Origin: Laccaria trichodermophora | Lineage: Eukaryota > Basidiomycota > Agaricomycetes > Agaricales > Hydnangiaceae | Assembly: GCA_018417955.1 (NCBI GenBank) | Contig: JACTVC010000028.1 | Coordinates: 744,001-808,000 of the forward strand | Direction of reading: 5' to 3' | Length of the DNA stretch: 64,000 nucleotides | Shown here: one piece after another, positions 8,338-22,122 of the stretch | How positions within the stretch are numbered: position 1 is the stretch's first letter | Layout: each line of letters begins with the position of its first letter | Notes under the pieces: generated by a model | What the model was told of the DNA's origin: nothing | The model's input: the letters and a program-made list of their open reading frames with translations, nothing else | The model's database searches: none | Translations under genes and position numbers: made by a program

Positions 8338-9643
8338 ATGTCTCTTTCCAATGTTGAATCCCAGGCCGCAGAGGATATAGAAAGACAACAGAGACGAGCA
8401 GACAGAGTTCGAAACCTCACCAAGCGCTTTCGCGTCCTCATCATTGGCCGTGCCAATGCGGGGAAGACAACCATCCTCCAGCGAGTTTGCAATACAACAG
8501 AACAGCCGAAAATTTTCAATCGGCAGGGTCATGAGGTATTCCATGTCCTATTCATTATCATCTATCATTATTTGATGTGAAGAAGATTGACTCATCCAAG
8601 CTTGATCCAACTGCACAGGTAATGTGGATCTACATTCTCTACTACATTTTACTGAAAGTGTGGCAGAGAGGGGAGCATGATATCGAGAATGAAATGATAT
8701 TTGAGAGCAATACAGCATTTGTCTTCCATGACTCACGTGGCTTTGAAGCAGGCAGAACATCTGAGCTGGATAAAGTTAAGGAGTTTCTGCAAAAACGTTC
8801 AACCAATGATGAGCTCAAGGATCATGTGCATGTGATTTGGTGAGTGACTGAGTTGTGACATTAAAGTGCATCTGAGTACATCTTGTGTAGGTACTGCATC
8901 CCAATCAATGATGAAGCCAGGCCAATTACAAGGGCAGAGTTAAATTTTTTCAATGAGTGTGGGACTGGTAGAGGTGTGTAAATTATTGATAATCTGTGAA
9001 ACTTCACCTTTCCTTTTGTGCACAGTTCCTGTTATTGTTCTGTTTACAAAAGCAGATATACTTGATGCCCAAACTATTAAATGCCTAGTTGATGCTGGAA
9101 TGGATGTTGAAGATGCTGCAAATAAAGCTCCAGAAGAGTCAGTTGCCAGGTTTGAAGAGAAATTTGGCCAGCAACTCTTCAAAAGAAAGTATCCTCCCAA
9201 GGATCATGTGTATTTTCGAGGTATAACAAACTCATTTACTCATTGACAATAGATTAATTGCATTTGACAGATATGCAAAATCCCACAAGTGACTGCAGTG
9301 AACTGCTGAGGAAGACAGCAGCCACCTTTTCAGATGACACACTCTTACAGCTGTTTCTTATGGTGCAGCAAAATAATGTGGCTCTGTCAATTGAATATGC
9401 AATTAAAAGGTAGTTGCTTCATTTTGAATTATATGCTGGTAACTTGCTGATTATCTAGAATAACAGAGTTGTCTTTCCAGGTTGGAAGTTATTCAAAGAA
9501 AAGAGAGAGTGGAGGAAGATGGTTGAGAAGATACTGAAGTATTTTCCACACATGGTATGTGGACCCTACTTGACTATACAGTGGTAGAACAAAATAATAT
9601 ATATGAACAGGCGGTAAGCCAACATCCAGTGGGTCTCAACTAG
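8338..9643 (+). CDS. fungal G-domain (P-loop GTPase-like) protein
   Basis: The start at 8338 begins MSLSNVESQAAEDIER. Walker A is in VLIIGRANAGKTTILQRVC (first exon). A later exon has FVFHDSRGFEAGRTSELDK, which holds the DxxG switch motif, and another has VPVIVLFTKADI, the T/NKxD base-specificity motif. This order (GRANAGKTT, HDSRGFEAG, VLFTKAD) is that of the fungal G-domain protein family common in Agaricomycetes. Role in the cell is unknown. Exons are about 8338-8535, 8586-8618, 8659-8841, 8892-8975, 9028-9220, 9271-9411, 9467-9554, and a short end. The frame for the exon ending KMVEKILKYFPHM uses the acceptor at about 9466. It then enters a tandem array of intron-like repeats, so the true 3' end is uncertain. 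The first exon is CpG-rich and the rest strikingly CpG-poor. Confidence 0.6.
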
Positions 9644-10176
9644 ATGCTAATGGGATCATTCTCTGGGTTTTGAACAGAATGTAAGTCAGGATCTGGCTGG
9701 CCCTTCCTGCTTGTTGCTGACAAGAGCATGCTCTGGGTTTTGAACAGAATGTAAGTCAGGATCTGGCTAACCCTTCCTGCTTGTTGCTGACAAGAGCATG
9801 CTCTGGATTTTGAACAGGTTGTAAGTCAGGACCTGGCTGGCCCTTCCTGCTTGTTGCTGACAAGAGCATGCCCTGGGTTTTGAACAGGTTGTAAGTCAGG
9901 ACCTGGCTGGCCCTTCCTGCTTGTTGCTGACAAGAGCATGCTCTGGGTTTTGAACAGGTTGTAAGTCAGGAACTGGCTGGCCCTTCCTGCTTGTTGCTGA
10001 CAAGAGCATGCTCTGGATTTTGAACAGAATGTAAGTCAGGAACTGTTTGGCTCTTCCTGCTTGTTGCTGACAAGAGCATGCTCTGGGTTTTGAACAGAAT
10101 GTAAGTCAGGAACTGGCTGGCCCTTCCTGCTTGTTGCTGACAAGAGCATGGCCTATATTTCAAATAGAGAGTAAGT
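9614..10176 (+). repeat. tandem array of 70-bp intron-like units
   Basis: Seven consecutive 70-bp units start with gtaagtcagg at 9681, 9751, 9821, 9891, 9961, 10031 and 10101. A diverged 64-nt relative precedes them (9614-9677) and another gtaagt starts at 10171. Each unit has a perfect 5' splice signal (GTAAGT), a branch-point-like GCTGAC, and a 3' end TTTTGAACAG about 25 nt later. Between one AG and the next GTAAGT there are always exactly 3 nt: aat, aat, gtt, gtt, gtt, aat, aat, then aga. So every unit is a 67-nt canonical intron plus a one-codon exon. The array lies in the G-domain gene, directly after an exon that reads in frame. Confidence 0.9.
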
Positions 10177-10352
10177 CTCACCCTTCTTCTCTTTTCATTT
10201 TGCTAAGAATCATGAGATTGTGAGTTCAGCTGTAGAATTTTAGAAAAATATTCATGAAAACTCTACTTCTTTAAATAGCATGTGAGTATTATATTTTTTC
10301 TTCCCATCTTTTTTTCAAAACTAGTATTGACTGAACCAAATACTATTTTTAG

Positions 10353-10802
10353 GTGAAGAATGTCCTCAATCATATTGACTGGTCCTTGGTAAACCTTCAC
10401 CACATAAATGCTATTCAATATTCTGACCACAACATAATTCTATGTAGATTCACAATACCAAATCCCCCAACGACACTGCCTTTCTATGTATTGGTGTGTC
10501 TACTCTCATTTATGACCACTCTATCATAGGTACTATTTTACTGCTCAGTGACAGCTATCATTGCAGAGCACTCTTTCTTTCTGTGGAAACAGAATCCTTC
10601 ACCATCACCTGCCCCATACACATTAGCCATTCAAAAGTTCAACTTGTCTGCTGATGTGGCAAAAATTAAAACTGCCATCAAGGAGGCCTCTCAGCTTAAA
10701 ACTGAGGACCAAAAGAAACAGGCCCTTGTAAAGATTGCTATGGACAATCGTCTTTGTGAGTATCAATATTCCAAGTCTTCCAAGGTCTTCTCATTTATTT
10801 GA
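10353..10802 (+). CDS. possible 3' exons of the G-domain gene, or a separate fragment
   Basis: After the array, a frame opens with VKNVLNHIDWSL (from about 10353). A second frame, 10548-10802, reads TAIIAEHSFFLW and then a charged helical stretch (AKIKTAIKEASQLKTEDQKK). Proteins of the G-domain family often end with a hydrophobic segment followed by helices, so these may be the C-terminal exons of the same gene. I cannot join them to the upstream exons without crossing the array. The nucleotide composition (CpG-poor) matches the later exons of that gene. The alternative is an unrelated degenerate ORF. The Harbinger element begins 124 bp downstream. Confidence 0.3.
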
Positions 10803-11075
10803 TTTTAGCTTTATAAAAGTTTCAGCCCACCTTCACAGAATTGCATAAATGCAGCACATGTCTCTAGTTACCACCCATTATGATGCATGTAACAGGTATA
10901 TATTATTATATCCTTCTTTTACATTAGGGGAGCTCAGAGTAAAAATAAGTGATGCTTATAGATCCTGTTTGTTGCTGGTTGATTATAACATGTGTGATTT
11001 CCATATACAGTAATCATCATAATAATAATAATAATAAATCCCACTGCCAGCTCAGGCATATTCTCAACATTAGCC

Positions 11076-12379
11076 ATGGCTCATAAAACATACCACTCTC
11101 AGGTTATGCAGACATATCTCACCCATATAGTTTTACATGACATACTCCTACCCCCTGATGAAGACATTGAACAGCCTTGCGAGAACCTCCAGTTTGATCT
11201 CACAGTTCTAGAAGCAATCCAAGCTACAAGATACCTATGTGGATGACCTGAAGTTGCAAAGTGCGGCAACCTACATCTGGCTTGAGAGTATCCCCCATGA
11301 TCACCAGCACTTCATAAACATGCTCCAGGTATCCCCCCATGTGTTCAATTTCATTTTAACCTTGATTAAGGACCACTCTGTCTTCTTCAACAATTCAAAT
11401 GTTCTGCAAACCCCTGTTGATGTCCAGCTGGCTGTCACTCTATATTGTATGGCCATTTTGGAAATGGTGCCAGCCTGGAAGATATTGCTCAGACAGCTGG
11501 GTGCTCAGAAGGTTCAGTGGAGGAATTCACAGACCACTGTTTTGAGGCAATCAAGTCCCTTCATGACATGTTCATTCAGCCCTTAACAGAGGAGGAAAAG
11601 GAGAAGGAGAAAGAGTGAATGGACCAGCAGCTGGGTTTCAAGGGCTTGTGGAGGGAAGGGTATCTCATGTACAATGGAACCATTGTTGTTGTCTATGCAA
11701 AACCAGGTTTGAATGGTGATGCATACTACACCCGCAAGGCTAACTATGGTTTAAATGCCCAAGTAAGTCATTAAAACTGTTTTCTCTCTTTGACTTACTG
11801 ATCTAAAAACTTTAGATCAGAAATGCACCTGCAAACCTATGCATTGTTGATTACTCACATGGATTCACAGGATCTGCTCACAATGCTGCAGCATTTGAGC
11901 ACACCTGTGCTTACAGGCATCTGGAATTCATTTTTCAAGGAGAAGAATTTGCATGGGCTGACTCTGCTTACACTTTTACTCTGCATATGATCCCTGTCCA
12001 TTGTCAACCAGCCTCCTTCCTCCCTGAAAACAGCCTTTTTGACCATATAGTACCTCAACTTCAAGTATGATCAGAACATTGCATGGGGGCTTTGAAGGGA
12101 AGGTTCTGGTGTTTGCATGGCCTCTGTGTCAACATAACATCCAATGAAGATCACAAGGCAGCTTGTCAGTGGATCACCATAGCCATCATTCTCCACAACC
12201 TCATCATCAATGTTGAGGGTTATGCATCAGGTTTAGCATTTGCACCCCTACATACCAGAGCAGAAGAAAGAGAGGATTGTGGAGACCCCACACTAGCCTT
12301 TGATGGAGAATTGACAGAGGCAGGAGAATTGAAAAGGCAGAGATTGACAGCTGAGCTATTAGCATACTATCAAGAGTAG
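11076..12379 (+). pseudogene. PIF/Harbinger DDE transposase, inactivated
   Basis: Remnant of a DDE_Tnp_4-type transposase. Recognisable blocks are GLWREGYLMYNGT, a DAYYTRKANYGLNAQ block, IVDYSHGFTGSAHN, FAWADSAYTF and SEHCMGALKGRF. In working relatives the first and second catalytic Asp stand in YDGT and HD; here both are Asn (AAT at 11673-11675 and 11882-11884). The final Glu (SEH) is kept. Other breaks are a frameshift near 11240, a 1-nt deletion near 11450 (frame change after LYCM), TGA at 11616-11618, and TGA at 12068-12070 where VRSEH is expected. One intron lies near 11764-11817. The end LTAELLAYYQE-stop is intact. Start chosen at the first ATG in a compatible frame (MAHKTYHSQ). Confidence 0.85.
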
Positions 12380-13215
12380 ATATTACATGGATATAAGATA
12401 ATGTAAACAAGGGTTATATGGGATGGATACCTGAGTGGTTGATGAATAGAGGTGACAATGCAAGAAAAGAAGGGTGATGCAGGTGGGTAACACAGGACGT
12501 GGTGAAGAAGGCAACACAGTGAATGGAAGAGGGTGATGCAGAGGTGCTTTCGTAGAAAGGGTAATAGTCCTAATCATTGAGCTCAAAGATGTCATTCTCA
12601 ATGTCCCAGCAAGGCAAGGGGGATTGGGGATGGGCCCTCTTCAGTGCTAGCTGGGAACCATCAAGGTTACATAACAGGTTCAAAAGCTCCTCTTTAGAGT
12701 ATACCCCAAGGGTGTGGAGCTTGACACACTGCTCACATTCCTCAAGCCTCAGATGATGCTTATTTTGCTGATTCAGAATAGCTGCCCGATTATTCAGGGC
12801 CTCCATATTTTGCCTGAACCATGGTGAGCAATAGAGAATAGCAATCAAAATGAATATGAACTGTGAGATCTCACACAGAGTTTCTTCTAGTGTTGCTGAA
12901 GTTTAGTCCTGAACCAACAGTTCGGCCCTTTTCAAAATTTTTGAGAACTTGGTTCAGACATGTTCAAACTGAACAGAACATATTCATATGTTGTATATTT
13001 TATCAGAGAATTTCTCACTGTTTCAGAGATTTAATGTGTCATCAAACTTTCATTGCTTCTTGTTGACTATGCCCAGCTCTGACCTTCCAGCCCTGGTGTA
13101 TGCATATTCATACTATCTCATATGTTCCTACTCAGTGACATTTTACAGGGGGATGCAGAAGGCTTCCCAACCCTCGCATGTCTCATGCATCATCATTTAA
13201 GTACTTATCAGTCCC

Positions 13216-13534
13216 TGTGATATAGGATTGGAAGGGAATGCCCAGAGGCCATAGTCAAACAGTGGTATATAGCTAGATTTGGATATCTTACATAATATAT
13301 TGATCTTTTGTCTTGAACCACCACCTTGTCAGCAGTCTTGCCATCCTCTTGCACTACATGTAGTGCTTTGTATAACTGTACTTCCTACAGTATGCATAAT
13401 CATGTTGGGCCAGCTGAGTATCTTGTAACTGCTCATTGCTCACTCATGGGTGTTGATCCCAGATCCACCCATTCTTGCCTCCTCCTTCCCTCTTGGCTTC
13501 AGCTATGCAAGAAGTTCAGAGTGAACACTTCACA
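13216..13534. repeat. 5' LTR
   Basis: 319-bp long terminal repeat, TG..CA bounded. Compared with the 3' copy it has an extra 9 bp (tgtagtgct-type insertion near 13360) and A instead of G at two sites near its end. Confidence 0.85.
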
Positions 13535-14259
13535 ATGGTGGGGGCACCGCGGACTTCACCAAAGCATGGTTGAAGTCTGCATTTCTTGGTAGAGGGAGAG
13601 CTGGAGAGTTGTGGGAATGCACCAGCTCATCACAGGAGGAACCTTAGCATGGATGGTAGCTGCTGCTCACACTCTTCGCGGTGGGCTTACTACTTCATGT
13701 GAAAGGGCTCATCCATCCTTCAGTTGGATGAACCATTGACTTTAGCTTGTGCTTGCACAGCTGGTTGAGGTTTGTTCGATTGGGGTGCTGCGCTGACTCT
13801 GAGCAGCTGGGCTTTGGGATTTCGCGACTACGCGGCCTGAAGTCTACTGTGAGGAGAGTTCCTACTCACCTATGTCTGGATTCCGCAACTATGCGACCAT
13901 TGACTTGGTGAGGAGGTTGCCCACAACCAGTGTCGCCTGCTGCTTTGCGCTGCTTCACTGTCTCTCAGACTCCACCTGTTCCTCAACCATCTCCCTTGTC
14001 TTTTAGCATCTAGGCCTCTCAAGAACAGCCAGATGTTCATTGACATCCCTCCAGTTCAGTCTGCTGCTCTGGAAATTATGTGCTATGCCCTACTATGCTT
14101 CTCTCCCAATCTTTGCTGTTTTCTTGCCTGAGGAATGAGTATTCTCATCCTCCTTACTTCTCTATGAACTCCCTGGAATGGCTCTTCTTGGTTTCTGAAT
14201 GGTTAGAAGGGTTTGGAGTGGTTTTGGGTTGGATGGGGTTGATGGGACATCAAAATTGG

Positions 14260-14897
14260 ACTTGTTCAACTCATATCTCGCCAACCGATGCCCCGATTGC
14301 TCTCGTCTTTTGCGCTGGGAAGCCCTCATTCACACCTTTCTTTGGACCCCCTGAACTCGCCAAACGGTCGCGTATTGGCTGCGCTTCACCTACTTCAGCC
14401 TGGTATGACCAAAATGAGCATATCTCGTCCGTTCTCGGCGAGATCCTCGTCGTTCCTTTTGTTCTTTGGCTCGTTTTAAAGCCACGGTCGATGCGCTTCT
14501 GGGAAGCCCTCATACGCGTCAAACGGACGAGCGGTTCTCGTGTTACAGCACCATCCCTCCAACAACCATTTACATGTGACTTGTTCATGTCATATCTCGC
14601 CAACCGACGGCCGTATCGCTATCGTCCTTTTTGCGTTGGGAAGCCCTGATTCACACCTTTTTTTGGACACCATAAACTCGCCAAACGGTCACCTATTGGC
14701 TGCGCATCGCCTAGTTCAGCCTGGTATGACCAAGATGAACATATTTCATCCGTTCTCAACGAGATCTCCGTCGCCTCTTTCGTTCTTTGGTTCGTTTTGA
14801 AGCTACGGACAATGCGCTTCTGGGAAGCCCTCATACGCATCAAACGGACAAGCGGTTCTTGCATTACAGCGTCATCTCTCCAACAACCATTTCCCCA
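14260..14897. repeat. tandem duplication, about 319-bp period, two copies
   Basis: The segment beginning tcatatctcgccaaccga at 14271 recurs from 14590 with about 90% identity by eye (for example gggaagccct, cgccaaacggtc, gatgcgcttctgggaagc). Both copies keep many CpG sites. They lie inside the LTR element and contain no recognisable protein motif, though one frame stays open through the first copy. Confidence 0.8.
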
Positions 14898-15270
14898 TTC
14901 TTATTGCCATAACCTGCTCACATCGGACGTTCTATAGCCCGTTTTGAACCTTGGACTCGTACCTTTCCGACGCATCTATTTACATCGATAACGGACAAAA
15001 GCCTGGTCTGCAGCATGCATTTACTCCAGAACTGCAGTTTCTGGGTACTTCCTCTCTATCTCAACGACCACGGCTCGTCACGATACGCGAATTATACCGT
15101 TGGAAAGGCGTCGGTCGTAGCTTTCTAACGGGTATTTGATCTCTAGGAACGGGCCAGAAATCACTACGCTATGCTCAAACACATTTTTGGCTACCTCAGG
15201 ATCTCCCCTCTATTTGGGGTGTTAAGACTTGATTGGAGGACTCTTATGGGCAGGGGAGACACCTCAACTG

Positions 15271-15655
15271 GTTGAGAGTTGCTGCTCGCGCATTACGCGG
15301 CGGACTCTTCTTCAGTCATGGTAACCTTCTGGCTCTCTCAGAAGGCTGATTGCTGCTCGCGCATTTTGCGGCGGATCAGTGTGGAGGAGTTGCAGCTCAC
15401 GCATTACGCGGCGGACTTTTCTTCAATCATGGTAACCTTCTGAGTCCCTCAGAAGTACTGATTGCTGCTCGCAAGTTACGTGGCAGATCAGTGTTGAGGA
15501 GTTGCTGCTCGCGCATTACGCGGCGGACTCTTCTTCAATCATGGTAACCTTCTGGCTCCTGATTGCAGCTCGCATGTTTTGTGGCGGATCAGTGTTGAGG
15601 AGTTGCTGCTTGCACATTATGCAGCAGACTCTTCTTCAATCATGGTAACCTTATA
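15271..15655. repeat. minisatellite of about 105-bp units, four copies
   Basis: Units start with gttgctgctcgcgcattacg-type sequence near 15281, 15388, 15502 and 15602. Each continues to cggcggactcttcttcaatc and atggtaaccttctggctc. Between main units a half-unit (gctgctcgc..gcggcggatcagtg) alternates. The last copies show cg-to-tg/ca changes (gcacattatgcagcagac). The array is part of the LTR element interior. Confidence 0.8.
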
Positions 15656-15920
15656 GATTGCTGCTTGTGTGTTGCATGGCCTGTGTCCACTCTGGGGGGC
15701 AAAATTTATGACAACATTTTTTTCCCCTCCTTTCCTTCAACCTCTTATCATTCCTACCCAACATGGCACCACCTTTACCCACTCAGACACCAACTTAGGA
15801 TCACGGCTTGTAATTTTCCACTGCACGATCTCTTCGCCTCTATCCTCCCTGGCTTGATTCTTGAGATTCGCACACTGGAAAAGTGGGGGGCTGTAGGGGA
15901 GTATAGGTGGAAGATGGGAG

Positions 15921-16165
15921 GAGAGGCACAAGCCTCTATCCCATTACATGCTCCCCACGTCCAGACGACACACCACAATGGAAGCAAGCTACATCATCTT
16001 GATGGGTAGAGGGAGTTGAGTTGGGATCAACGATCTGAGTGGAGAGGCACAAGCCTCTATCACACTATACATGTCTTATACCCAGACCACAAGTATGATG
16101 GAAGCATGCTACACCATCTTGATGGGGAAAGGCAATGGAGTTGGGATGGATGACCTGGAAGCCAT
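15921..16165. repeat. tandem duplication, about 120-bp period
   Basis: gaggcacaagcctctatc occurs at 15924 and again at about 16044. The blocks ccacaatggaagcaagctac / caagtatgatggaagcatgc and catcttgatggg follow at matching offsets. Non-coding, inside the LTR element. Confidence 0.75.
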
Positions 16166-16450
16166 CCACTTGCATGGTTTCCCAGTACTCATGGTTATAC
16201 ATCACTGAAGAGAGAATGGGAGGATCATATGGGTATTTCTGGGTTAAGCTGGGAGCTTACAGTGACCAGCTTTCCAGATAGCAAATTATTTGGGGCCAAA
16301 TTTTTTCTTTCTTTTATTCATCTTCTTTGCTTTGCTACCTTTTGGTCTCATTTTATCCTGATATTCACTCTGGGGGGCAAGAGGATTTCTATTCTATTAT
16401 TCTTCCCCACCATTGTTTTCCTTACATGCCCTCTGGACATTGGGGGGCTT

Positions 16451-16760
16451 TGTGATATAGGATTGGAAGGGAATGCCCAGAGGCCATAGTCAAACAGTGG
16501 TATATAGCTAGATTTGGATATCTTACATAATATATTGATCTTTTGTCTTGAACCACCACCTTGTCAGCAGTCTTGCCATCCTCTTGCACTACATTGTATA
16601 ACTGTACTTCCTACAGTATGCATAATCATGTTGGGCCAGCTGAGTATCTTGTAACTGCTCATTGCTCACTCATGGGTGTTGATCCCAGATCCACCCATTC
16701 TTGCCTCCTCCTTCCCTCTTGGCTTCAGCTATGCGAGAAGTTCAGAGTGAACGCTTCACA
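16451..16760. repeat. 3' LTR
   Basis: 310-bp copy of the repeat at 13216-13534. It is followed directly by GTCCC, the target duplication, and then by the interrupted inverted repeat of the hAT-like element it landed in. Confidence 0.85.
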
Positions 16761-19700
16761 GTCCCCCACAGAATCCTGCAGGACTCACAGGATTCCTGAG
16801 GATTCCTGCAGGACTACACTATAATTTTGGCAAATTTGAGTTTTAGGAGAAAAATTCTGTCAAGTCCTCAGGATTCCTGAGGACTACATGACATTTAACC
16901 ATCTGTGACATCTTTAAACACTTCCTCTAACTTCCTTAATGAACTTAACTCTATTTCCCTCCTTAACACATTCAGATATCAATACATAGTAGAATTTAAT
17001 TATATTTTAAATGACATCAAAATTACTTTACAAGTATATTAAAGGGAGGGGGGAAGGAGGGACAGACAGGAAGGAGGGGTACAGACAGGGTAGAAAGGAG
17101 GACAGGAATGGGAGAACAGACAGGAAGGGAGATAGAGAGAAATGGGGGACAGACAGATAGGGAGGGGGGACAGATAGGGAGGGGACAGACAGGAAGGAAG
17201 GATAGAAATGGAGGGTGGACATACTGTGGGCACTCATTGCTGCTTGTTGGTGGCAGCCTCATTCGCCGTTCATCAGCAGTGGTGGGGTCATGTCTGTCTG
17301 TGGGCACTCGTTGTCCACGGCTCTCATTGTTTGTGGGTGGCAGGTCGTCATTGTCATGCATGCGTGGGCATCGTGTCTGTGGGTGGGGGGGCTGACGTTG
17401 TCTGAGGGCACTTGTCGTTCACAGGTATGGGGTTGTCATTGTCTGTGGGTGGGGTTGTTGTCATTGTCCATGGGCACTCATCGTCCGTGGGCACTCATCG
17501 TTCATGGGTGGTGGCGGAAGGGGTGGTGGTGGTGTGGTTGTGGGGTCCTGTTTGTTGTCAAAAAAGTCACTGTCGACATGGCATACCTGGATGGGCATGC
17601 CATGTCAGCAGTTTGGTGGTGGCACTGTTTGTTGGGTGCCACCGCCTCGTCAGCATTGGTGGGTGGGCTGTCATGGTGGTGTGTGGTGGTGGTGGCACAT
17701 GGTGGTGGGGTTGTCGTCCCTTGTCATGGGGTCATGGGCATTCGTCATCGACACAGCACACCCAGATGGGGTGTGCCACATCAGCCGTTTGGTGGTGGCG
17801 CCGTTTGCTGGGCACCACCACCTTTGTTGTTGTTGATGTTGATGGGGTCATGGACGTTGATGCAGTCATCGTCATCATCGTCGTGGGCGAGGTGGTGGTG
17901 GGTGGTGATGAAAGAGAGAGGTGTCGTGTCATGTCACATATGAGAACCATCATCAACAAACATGTGCATGGGATGCATCACACCATGTGATGCATTTCCA
18001 AGCACATGTTTGTGGGTCATATGACTCATCACATGCATCAATCCTGGGACTAGTCCTGTCTGAAAATCCTCAGGACTGTCTTCAGTCCTCAGGAATGGAC
18101 CCCCACAGGACTGAAAAAATTGGCTGGTACATCAGCCAATACTCAGTCCTAGGACTGTGCAAGAATCCTCAGGAATCCTCAGGAATCCTGCAGGAATCAG
18201 TGGGGGACAATAAAGACCTCCATTATTTGGAGGTTCAAGGCTCTTCCAAACAAGCTGTTTTTAATGTTAAGGTTACAGGCACTTAGTCTCTTCAGCTTGC
18301 CTTGACACCCACAAACCCCCTTGCGGAGTGGGATAACTACAAGCTCAACATCATACATCTCTCAAAGTTGGGTCAGCATTTTCTCTGCAATGCACTCAAG
18401 ATGAAGCAGGAGAGTGGGACAATGGATAAATGGTGGAGATATCCCCTGTTTGATTGTGTGCTTATGAGGTTTTATAGAAAATGGGTGGTTAGCAGGGAGT
18501 GGAGCATTAGGAAGTTTTGGAGTTTGCAGAGGAAGAGTATGAGATCGATGCCCCTAAGTATGGTATGTTTTTGCAGCTCATGGAGTGTCTGACCCTTGCT
18601 GATGATGAGGCTCCTGTAGAATGGGTCTGTTGGGCACTCAAAGGCCACAAGGGCTTTCTCTCCAGCATGGAAACACAGCTGGACAGTTCACCATGGCTGC
18701 AAAAAAGTTGACCAGGCTTGGATTTGGGGTAATGAAGAGTGGGAGTGGGCAAGGTGGTTATTTCTTATTGGCTGGGTGCAAATTATCAAGCACACTCATA
18801 CAATGAACCTTCTCAATGCTTCAATCAAGGCTGATGGTCACCCAGAATGTAGATATATTAGTATTTAGACACTAATCTTGACATAATCATATGGAGGCAA
18901 ATCACCATTCCTTCTGCCAGTTCAGCAGTTCGAACTGAGAACTGAATGGAACTGAACAGGAAAGAACAGTTCTTACCAGTTCAGTCCTGTTCAGTCCTCA
19001 GTTCTGCCCAGAGGCTGTCAGTCCAGTTCTCAGTTCTCAAAAAATGCCAAAGAACCAAACTGAACTGAACTTTGGCAACACTAGTTTCTTTGAAGCTCCA
19101 TTTTTGGGGAATCTTCTTGATTGAGCTCTTTGCGGTCTCAACCATAGAAGCCAGGACAAACAATGATTCCTTTGGGCCCTTCTTTCCTGTCACAGGAGCA
19201 GTATTCTCTTTCCCTCCTTGGGTGGACTGAGGTGGTGGTCGAGCTGGAGTCATGGGAGGGGCACTGGGGGTCACAGCTGGCATTGGGGTCTCAGGAATAG
19301 CACAATTGTTGATGGAAATGTCGCCTAAGGGTAATCATTGGTGGGTGGCATCAGTGATGTCTGGCTGAGGTGCACCAGCTTGAGTTGTCACCATGGAACG
19401 AAGCTGGGGGTTGATGTTGTCTTCATTCCCACCCACACTGGAGTTTCCACAGGGAGCTTGACAATGCATGACTTTGCATCCCTCAGGACCTATGCCAGTC
19501 ATTACAACAGGAGGGATCACATTTGGATGAGTCGACAAGTAGCAATGCATGGCAGCAAAGTAAGGAAATGCCTTGTTGATGTCATCTAGCAAAAATTCAA
19601 GTTTAGAAGGGAGAAATAATGATGCTATGCACCCCAGATATTCAATGCTTCCTGAGTTGTCATTATGTCCGGCCCTGTGTTTGGAATGTAACAAGTGAGG

Positions 19701-19861
19701 TATTTGGTCACATCATCCAAATTGTCTGGGCTATTGTCGTTACTGCCCAGCCCACCTCCAGTTTGCTGAAGCCTCTTGATCTCCTTTTTGTAACATGCAT
19801 ACAAGCTTAATAGGTGGGGCATCAGCTAGTGCATGGTATATTGTTGAATACCACTAAGCTA

Positions 19862-20105
19862 TGCATCAACATAAAGTAAACTGTAAATCTGATGGCTCAG
19901 TGGCTTAATCCCTGAAGTCTTGTGTTCAACTCCTGCTTGTGCCAGATAGCATAAGACCCATGAAGGCAGACTACAGTTGCCAAATGCATAAAAGGGTGAC
20001 ACTATGGAATATTAGTTGAATTACTACAGCACGCATAGTCACTGGCCCCACTGTATGGGGTCATAGGGGGGTTATTCACCAACCACTGGGTCAGGTTTAC
20101 TTTAT
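19862..20105 (+). mobile_element. tRNA-derived SINE candidate
   Basis: A 244-bp insert flanked by a perfect 19-bp direct repeat GTTGAATACCACTAAGCTA (19843-19861 and 20106-20124). Near its 5' end it has a good RNA polymerase III A box (TGGCTCAGTGG, 19893-19903) and, about 20 nt on, a B box (GTTCAACTCC, 19923-19932). This is the promoter layout of tRNA-derived SINEs. Its ends also carry an imperfect inverted repeat (caacataaagtaaac / gtttactttatgttg), so a small TIR element remains an alternative. No A-tail is present. It lies in an intron of the Harbinger partner gene, next to a palindrome (20107-20147) built from the same 18-bp word. Confidence 0.5.
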
Positions 20106-22122
20106 GTTGAATACCACTAAGCTACACATAGCTTAGTGGTATTCAACATATATAAATTATATTTGTGATGTACTCTTCAGCCTTGTTCTTCACATGGTTT
20201 CAGATTGCATCCAGATCAAGTGCACATCATTCTGGAAGGATGGCCTTGCTGATGTGCTTGTACACCTTGATCTTGCTGTCTCCAAGCACTTTCTACAAGA
20301 TGAGGAGAATCAGTCCTCATTTAAGCTATGGAGTCCTACCAAATACACACCTTAGAGCCATAAAGCATGCTGCAGTTCTGTTTCTTCTCAATCTCATTGA
20401 GGAGCTTCCAGATAAGGGCATTGTTGTTTCCAATCCAGTCAATGGTTGGAATCACAGGCTTTGGAGCCTTGGTGGCCTTGCCTTTAGCGCCCCGAGCCAT
20501 AGCCTAAGACACAAAGAAACATAGAGTAAGGACAGTGGATGGTTAAGATGTCAATATGGTATTGCAAGGCCAACATTAAGTTACTATGCTGACAAATCTG
20601 TGACATATGGTCAGCAGCTAGCAACAAACAGGATCTATAAGCATCGCTTATTTTTACTCTGAGCTCCCCTATTGAAATTGGATAGAGTCCTTGAAATGTG
20701 TTGAAGATAAAGTTTTAGACGGTTTCCCATCATGATTTATGTAAGCCAAGCCAAACACAGGGGCAAACTTAGTCTCTCCTAGCAGACTTCGATATATGTG
20801 AAGTCGTACCTTGGTTCACGATATATGAAGTCTGTTGTTTGTCACGCCCCAAAAACCGTGTCAGGAAATGTTTATGTAATCTTCGGACTCTGAAATCATG
20901 GTCCGACCTCGTCGCGTCGATATTGGTCTTCATGTCCTGACGCATTTTAAATACATTCTTCCCTTTACGCTGATATGCCTGCAACGCAGTAGATGTGTAT
21001 GGAAAATCCAAAACACACCAAATACAAAGCCTTCGGAAATGGTTAGCATTGCTTTGAGTGGCTCTGAAAGACACGAGACGGAGTTCTCTGGGCTTCTCAA
21101 AACAGGAAAGGTGATGAGGACACAACTCCTAATGTGTGGGAGTGCGTCCGAAGGTGTGTGGGGAGTATGAGGATGTTAGGGACAATGTGAGCAGAGGGAA
21201 TAATCGGAAAACGAATAATGCGAAGGTTGACAAGTGCACACGGTGTGCAGGACGATGGCAAAGAGTATAACGAAGTGCTGAAGCGATTATCAGCTGGAAC
21301 GAGATGCGAATCGAGGGGTGAAGTACAACTTGTTATTTCGAAGTACTATGATACTACAAATACATGAATGTACAAATATTCAAAAATATTCAAAAAAAGG
21401 AAATGTGAAAGATAGAAACAAAGATAAGAAGTTCCGAAACATGAAACATGAAGATAGTAAGAGCAAAATCAGAGAAATGCGAAAGAAGTAAAAAAAATGA
21501 ATATAAAATAAAAGAAGAATAAGTAAGGGGTGGAAAGGCACCAATATATTCGGAAAATGGAGGCAAAGACTGGCTGTGCATGGCGATTGATCCTAGGTTA
21601 AATCTAAACTCCAAATATGCAAACAATATGACCGGATTGATGGGAATGGATGAATGCCGGAGTATGTGCCTGTGCGCATTCTTTCGCAATACAACTATTC
21701 GGGCATGTGTGAAGATACATCTGAAGTGGCGAGAAAGCGAAAGGGTAATTGTTGATGAGTCTGCGAATGTCTTGTGAACATGTGTGTGGAGATGTTGTCG
21801 AAATCCTCGCAAAGCTGTTGAATATTCGGAAGTTCGGATTTAAAGCGTGTACACATGATAGAATATTCGGGGTGTGTGTGGAAACGCGCGAATGGAACAT
21901 CCTAAAGTTGGCGAAGACATCTGAACGTGTTATTGAATCGAATATAGGCAGGAGGGGACGCGTGTGGAGTAAGATTCGCAAAGTTGGTAGAATATTCGGA
22001 AATTCGGAAATTCGTTCGGAAGTTCGGGTTCGCGTGCCTAGGATAAGCGCGCGCTCATCAACGCATCCTGAACATTGACTTTTTGGCTTTTAGAATTACT
22101 TCGAATGTGTTATGAACATGAA

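What the first reader, a model, noticed from the sequence alone, without database searches (positions are those of the whole stretch)
10923..20673. Four-level nested transposon stack with a target duplication at every level
Seen in sequence: (1) Harbinger 10926-20670, 51-bp TIRs, ATT duplicated. (2) hAT-like B 12888-19083, GTTTCTTC/GTTTCTTT. (3) hAT-like A copy 2, 13199-18220, CATCATTT/CATTATTT. (4) LTR element 13216-16760, GTCCC duplicated. Each removal restores the layer below: level 2 removal rejoins the partner gene in frame, and level 4 removal rejoins the split inverted repeat of level 3. The inner duplication of the youngest layer is exact, and those of layers 2 and 3 each carry one mismatch. 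This gives a relative dating of four invasions by three transposon classes at one site.
Basis: seen in the sequence. Interest (0 to 1): 0.9.

Follow-up and report, generated by a model that had tools for sequence, protein, structure and literature searches.

The report
Nested stack of transposons in mushroom
A stretch of a mushroom genome holds jumping genes inserted one inside another, and relatives that lack the inner insertions confirm three of the four reported steps; it is a well-resolved example of a common kind of genome clutter, not a new kind of thing.

Summary
The nesting is real. Three of four layers pass an independent empty-site test. Level 4 (LTR element): 25 of 25 hAT-A copies with both ends found read through the target. 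Level 3 (hAT-A): two hAT-B relatives read through the site, in the hAT dimerisation domain. Level 2 (hAT-B): three of three homologous partner proteins read through with no gap.

Level 1 is only half supported. The Harbinger family makes 3-bp AWT duplications, but removing it does not restore the layer below: the left flank is the first 38 bp of an LTR inserted into a repeated segment, and the right flank continues neither.

The stack is richer than reported: two older layers on the left, a 307-bp MITE-like element in an intron of the Harbinger partner gene, and a host-gene fragment in hAT-B.

Nesting gives the order; duplication mismatches add little. Nested transposons and gene capture by hAT elements are known in fungi.

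The parts
10250..10887 (+). Repeated segment X, the oldest layer seen; cut at 10887
   Evidence: 13 other places in the genome at 75-93% identity (two of them perhaps one split copy); 6 of 6 copies read past this point continue with other sequence
10888..10925 (+). First 38 bp of another LTR family (TGTAACAGG...), inserted in X and itself cut by the Harbinger
   Evidence: 97% over 36-38 bp to LTRs in L006, L007, L008; read in full in L078, L079
10923..10925 (+). Left ATT flank of the Harbinger
   Evidence: family duplications AWT
10926..20670 (+). PIF/Harbinger element, level 1; TIRs 10926-10976 and 20620-20670
   Evidence: TIRs 50 of 51; DDE_Tnp_4 pieces; single copy
20671..20673 (+). Right ATT flank of the Harbinger
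11816..12379 (+). Two pieces of a DDE transposase reading frame
   Evidence: PF13359 at E 2.5e-6 (above cut-off) and 1.9e-4 (21.5 bits, below the 24.8 cut-off); the piece 11212-11586 had no Pfam match
12570..12887 (-). C-terminal part of the Harbinger partner gene
   Evidence: 82.9% identical to P0003 residues 270-374
19092..19334 (-). Partner gene, part just before the hAT-B insertion
   Evidence: 88.9% identical to P0003 residues 189-269
12880..12887 (+). Left 8-bp duplication of hAT-B, GTTTCTTC
12888..19083 (+). hAT-B, level 2; internally deleted hAT element
   Evidence: ends shared with L041, L089, L090, L091, each with an exact 8-bp duplication
19084..19091 (+). Right 8-bp duplication of hAT-B, GTTTCTTT
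13191..13198 (+). Left 8-bp duplication of hAT-A, CATCATTT
13199..18220 (+). hAT-A, level 3; no transposase seen, many copies
18221..18228 (+). Right 8-bp duplication of hAT-A, CATTATTT
13211..13215 (+). Left GTCCC duplication of the LTR element
13216..16760 (+). LTR element, level 4; LTRs 13216-13534 and 16451-16760
   Evidence: at least 39 other places at 99-100% over the LTR plus 26 bp (40 of 410 candidates scored); two of its frames scanned, no Pfam match
16761..16765 (+). Right GTCCC duplication of the LTR element
18285..18754 (+). Host-gene fragment inside hAT-B
   Evidence: 83% to C9:106587-107074, the only other match; absent from hAT-B relatives L041 and L043
19842..20148 (+). MITE-like element in an intron (19806-20173) of the partner gene, flanked by TATAT on both sides
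   Evidence: five near-full copies elsewhere; alignment and flanks; intron judged from P0003

Best explanation
A decaying PIF/Harbinger transposon in an Agaricales genome served as landing ground for later insertions. Order: repeated segment X; an LTR element into X; the Harbinger into that LTR; hAT-B into the Harbinger partner gene; hAT-A into hAT-B; a probably non-coding LTR element into hAT-A. Two side events: a MITE-like element entered an intron of the partner gene, and hAT-B holds a piece of a host gene. Each element would have moved by its family's ordinary mechanism, transposase for the DNA elements (supplied in trans for hAT-A and probably hAT-B) and reverse transcription and integration for the LTR element. 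Shown: termini, duplications, and relatives that read through the sites of levels 2 to 4. Inferred: supply in trans, and a deletion or recombination that removed the rest of the LTR and of X to the right of the Harbinger.
For: Termini and duplications. Level 4: 25 of 25 paired hAT-A copies uninterrupted at the LTR target. Level 3: L041 and L043 read through; the joined window flanks follow the L043 protein, which has PF05699 at E 4.4e-12. Level 2: P0001, P0002 and P0003 align on both sides at adjacent residues. Harbinger: TIRs, DDE_Tnp_4, 3-bp flanks in 4 of 4 pairs with the window counted. Older layers.
Against: No empty site for the Harbinger; its right flank does not continue the layer below. 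14 of 25 hAT-A pairs and 3 of 7 hAT-B pairs lack a matching duplication, so many copies are rearranged or were mispaired by the script. The L041 frame gave no Pfam match. Level 2 rests on proteins, not DNA, as no paralog exists here. No related strain was available.
Confidence: 0.93

Rival explanations
1. The two ends of the Harbinger come from different insertion sites: recombination between two copies, or another rearrangement, joined an LTR-flanked left end to a foreign right end, and ATT/ATT matches only because the family targets AWT. The inner layers are unaffected.
For: The left flank is an LTR cut exactly at the Harbinger, and its continuation is absent on the right; X is not continued either; the family uses only ATT and AAT in the 4 pairs seen.
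Against: The TIRs match at 50 of 51. The right flank reads ATTG, as does the LTR in L006, one base more than the duplication. No second full Harbinger copy was found. An adjacent deletion explains the data equally well.
Confidence: 0.4
2. The stack is an assembly artefact, repeats misjoined.
For: hAT-A and the LTR element are high-copy.
Against: Base-exact joins with duplications at each edge and relatives that read through three of the sites.
Confidence: 0.02
3. The host-gene piece and the MITE-like element were present before, so that they are not separate events.
For: Neither is ordered against hAT-A or the LTR element by nesting.
Against: hAT-B relatives L041 and L043 have 107-108 bp between the flanking matches, and the MITE-like element has its own duplication TATAT and copies with other 5-bp duplications.
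Confidence: 0.05

Closest known systems
Nested and clustered TEs of Laccaria bicolor (PMC3411680, passages read)
   Same: Agaricales genome of 60 Mb in which about 80% of TEs are inserted in or lie next to another TE; LTR, TIR, MITE and LARD elements present
   Different: The passages I saw give no layer-by-layer empty-site test like the one here
Nested insertions in PIF/Harbinger elements of Medicago truncatula (PMC2213677, passages read)
   Same: A Harbinger element interrupted by other elements, one with TIRs and a 5-bp duplication; empty sites used as proof of mobility
   Different: Plant genome; fewer layers described in the passages seen
hAT transposon with captured histone H3 in Dothideomycetes (PMC6710886, abstract and outline read)
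   Same: A fungal hAT element that carries a piece of a host gene
   Different: There the piece was amplified to hundreds of copies; here only one captured copy was found

Membership tests
PIF/Harbinger | DDE transposase of the DDE_Tnp_4 type | tested here: met
   PF13359 at 27.6 bits (cut-off 24.8) in one piece, 21.5 bits in the next
PIF/Harbinger | 3-bp duplication | tested here: met
   ATT or AAT on both sides in 4 of 4 pairs, window included; canonical plant elements use TTA/TAA (PMC2213677)
PIF/Harbinger | Second protein with a Myb/SANT-type domain | tested here: inconclusive
   A second gene exists, but the one piece scanned had no Pfam match
hAT (element B) | 8-bp duplication and TIRs | tested here: met
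hAT (element B) | hAT transposase with C-terminal dimerisation domain | tested here: met
   PF05699 in the relative L043; the joined window flanks follow that protein; the window copy keeps only this part
hAT (element A) | 8-bp duplication | tested here: met
   11 of 25 paired copies exact, window one mismatch
hAT (element A) | hAT transposase, or an autonomous relative with the same ends | not tested
   No search was made for an autonomous relative; classed hAT-like by duplication only
LTR retrotransposon (level 4) | Paired LTRs with TG...CA ends and a 5-bp duplication | tested here: met
LTR retrotransposon (level 4) | gag/pol coding region | tested here: inconclusive
   Two frames scanned without a Pfam match; the others were not scanned; LARD-like if truly non-coding
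MITE (19842-20148) | Short element, long TIRs, target duplication, many copies | tested here: met
   59-bp perfect TIR in L082, 5-bp duplications in 5 of 5 copies checked (4 independent, as L082 and L083 share flanks), ten clusters of its end in the genome
MITE (19842-20148) | Assignment to a superfamily through an autonomous partner | tested here: inconclusive
   No cluster of its 20-bp end is longer than 367 bp

The most novel reading that the evidence does not exclude
The Harbinger reached this mushroom lineage by horizontal transfer. Its broken partner protein is still 83-89% identical over 81 and 105 residues to one of Laccaria bicolor, whereas for a conserved host protein, the chitin synthase export chaperone, no Laccaria protein is named among the 120 best of 1671 hits and the named ones listed are at most 80% identical. 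The element is single-copy here, which would fit an arrival that failed to spread. Caveats: many listed hits bear no species name, among them the best (89%), and only one host gene was compared.
Probability: 0.3. Interest if true: 0.4.

Novelty: new member of a known kind. Interest (0 to 1): 0.25.

Why it matters
The locus is a clean worked example: the order of insertion is fixed by nesting and three of four layers are checked against independent empty sites, so it can serve as a test case for software that resolves nested TEs and as a relative timeline for several TE families of this genome. It changes no general view, since nested TEs and captured gene pieces are described in fungi already. 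If the horizontal-transfer reading held, the decaying Harbinger would add a case of movement between mushroom lineages.

Tried and rejected
Rejected: a 2-bp TA duplication for the Harbinger, because a third base also matches in 4 of 4 pairs. Rejected: a tRNA-derived core of the MITE-like element; ARAGORN found no tRNA in 5 loci and Rfam gave only matches far below the gathering scores, mostly hairpin families. Rejected: a solo LTR for that element, because its TIR is 59 bp perfect and no two copies lie at the distance of an LTR pair. Tested without success: an empty site for the Harbinger through paralogous flanks. Led nowhere: a C-to-T bias in the LTR element; substitution types are mixed. 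Dating: two substitutions over 310 aligned LTR bases at 1.3e-8 per site per year, the rate used in PMC3411680, give about 0.25 million years, a very rough figure.
Full report
Setting. The window is G000:C21:744001-808000 of a 59-Mb assembly in 77 contigs. Protein hits point to an Agaricales mushroom without a very close named relative: the best named hits for a conserved chitin synthase chaperone are at most 80% identical among the 120 listed of 1671, and a host gene on contig C9 finds 16 proteins, the named ones from Agaricales such as Coprinopsis, Termitomyces, Lyophyllum and Mycena (only 7994 candidates were scored).

Observation. One search confirmed every terminus and duplication in the finding: Harbinger 10926-20670 (ATT/ATT; TIRs 50 of 51), hAT-B 12888-19083 (GTTTCTTC/GTTTCTTT), hAT-A 13199-18220 (CATCATTT/CATTATTT) and LTR element 13216-16760 (GTCCC twice).

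Level 4, LTR element in hAT-A. hAT-A is abundant: 45 matches, with 40 of 117 candidates scored. Thirty loci were cut out, one of them the window. In 25 of the other 29 the script found both ends; all 25 carry the left end uninterrupted across the place where the window has the LTR element. Of the 25, 11 have an exact 8-bp duplication and 14 do not; for one of the 14, L010, one search shows that the script took a wrong right end and that the true pair differs at one base. Some of these loci are not independent (L031 and L032 share flanks). The LTR family has 40 listed places, all at 99-100% over the LTR and 26 adjoining bases, with 40 of 410 candidates scored. The two LTRs of the window copy differ by two substitutions and a 9-bp gap.

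Level 3, hAT-A in hAT-B. The hAT-B relatives L041 and L043 read through the site. A frame of L043 gives PF05699, the hAT dimerisation domain, at E 4.4e-12; a frame of L041 gave no Pfam match. The joined window flanks give a frame that follows the L043 protein across the junction. Both relatives have ATTATTT at the site, as the right copy in the window has, which suggests that the mismatch arose in the left copy. Twelve B-family loci were examined; in 7 a left end was found, and 4 of these 7 (L041, L089, L090, L091) have an exact 8-bp duplication, while 3 differ at 6 of 8 bases. L041 is itself an insertion into a repeat whose uninterrupted version lies in this window; the duplicated 8-mer AATATTGC corresponds to window 23016-23023 with one difference.

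Level 2, hAT-B in the Harbinger partner gene. The Harbinger is single-copy here, so paralogs could not serve. A database search with the part before the insertion gave three proteins. In all three the two sides of the insertion, compared separately, align to adjacent residues: P0003 of Laccaria bicolor 269|270, P0001 191|192, P0002 159|160.

Level 1, the Harbinger. TIR relatives carry ATT/ATT (L003), AAT/AAT (L004) and AAT/AAT (L005), so the family makes 3-bp AWT duplications. The site below is not restored. The left flank 10250-10887 is a repeated segment X with 13 other places in the genome, two of which may be one split copy. Six of the 13 reach 10887-10888; these six were read further and all continue with sequence not found in the window. 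At 10888 an LTR begins (TGTAACAGG...), and 38 bp later the Harbinger begins. The right flank does not match the rest of that LTR (104 of 300 shuffles score as high) and does not hold the rest of X. The first 88 bases of the right flank match nothing else among the places scored (40 of 106 candidates). The left side thus shows two older layers, and the right side was lost by deletion or recombination; which of the two is unresolved.

Missed components. (a) 19842-20148 is a MITE-like element with TATAT on both sides. Five near-full copies lie elsewhere. Copies L080-L084 are 313-314 bp with exact 5-bp duplications in 5 of 5, four of them independent because L082 and L083 share flanks; the TIR of L082 is 59 bp perfect and begins with a palindrome of about 44 bp. 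The 32 places of its 20-bp end form ten clusters, none longer than 367 bp. By comparison with P0003 the element lies in a GT-AG intron, 19806-20173, of the partner gene (read by eye). (b) 18285-18754 in hAT-B is 83% identical to one other place, C9:106587-107074. The protein read there has relatives in several Agaricales, though the C9 copy itself has one in-frame stop in this stretch. L041 and L043 have 107 and 108 bp between the flanking matches, so the piece was gained in this copy or its lineage.

Dating. The order follows from nesting: X, LTR, Harbinger, hAT-B, hAT-A, LTR element. The MITE-like element is younger than the Harbinger but is not ordered against hAT-B. Duplication mismatches (0, 1, 1, 0 from outside in) give no order. 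The LTR pair gives about 0.25 million years at the rate used in PMC3411680, a rough figure.

Literature. Six searches were made. PMC3411680 (passages): about 80% of the TEs of Laccaria bicolor are nested or adjacent. PMC2213677 (passages): nested insertions in a plant Harbinger. PMC6710886 (abstract and outline): host-gene capture by a fungal hAT. PMC12730594 (passages): Harbinger-related elements make 0, 2 or 3-bp duplications, and some hAT elements 5 bp. The species is not known to me, so no search was made for a description of this very locus.

Judgement. A true, well-supported and fairly ordinary nested insertion, better documented than claimed at levels 2 to 4, weaker at level 1, and richer in components.

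Noticed in passing
window 19842-20148; L080-L085: MITE-like family with a 59-bp perfect TIR that begins with a palindrome of about 44 bp, and 5-bp duplications; no autonomous partner seen and superfamily unassigned.
   Followed up: partly
   Followed up: partly
window 20829-23801: Next to the Harbinger lies another repeated element with 90-bp inverted arms at 77% and a weak helicase-like piece at 22072-22365 (DEAD, E 0.0048, below the cut-off).
   Followed up: no
window 13535-15060: The interior of the level-4 LTR copy is 98% falling to 81% identical to 28 other copies while its LTR stays at 99.4%; other copies show a similar but smaller decline.
   Followed up: partly
window 9570-10247: An array of 70-bp tandem repeats beside segment X.
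   Followed up: no
G000:C11:17918-22120: Segment X is split there into two matches about 3.57 kb apart, near the length of the level-4 LTR element; possibly another insertion of that family.
   Followed up: no
L076 (C9:106587-107074): The presumed donor gene has an in-frame TAG where the captured copy in the window has CAG, so the donor may itself be broken or misread.
   Followed up: no
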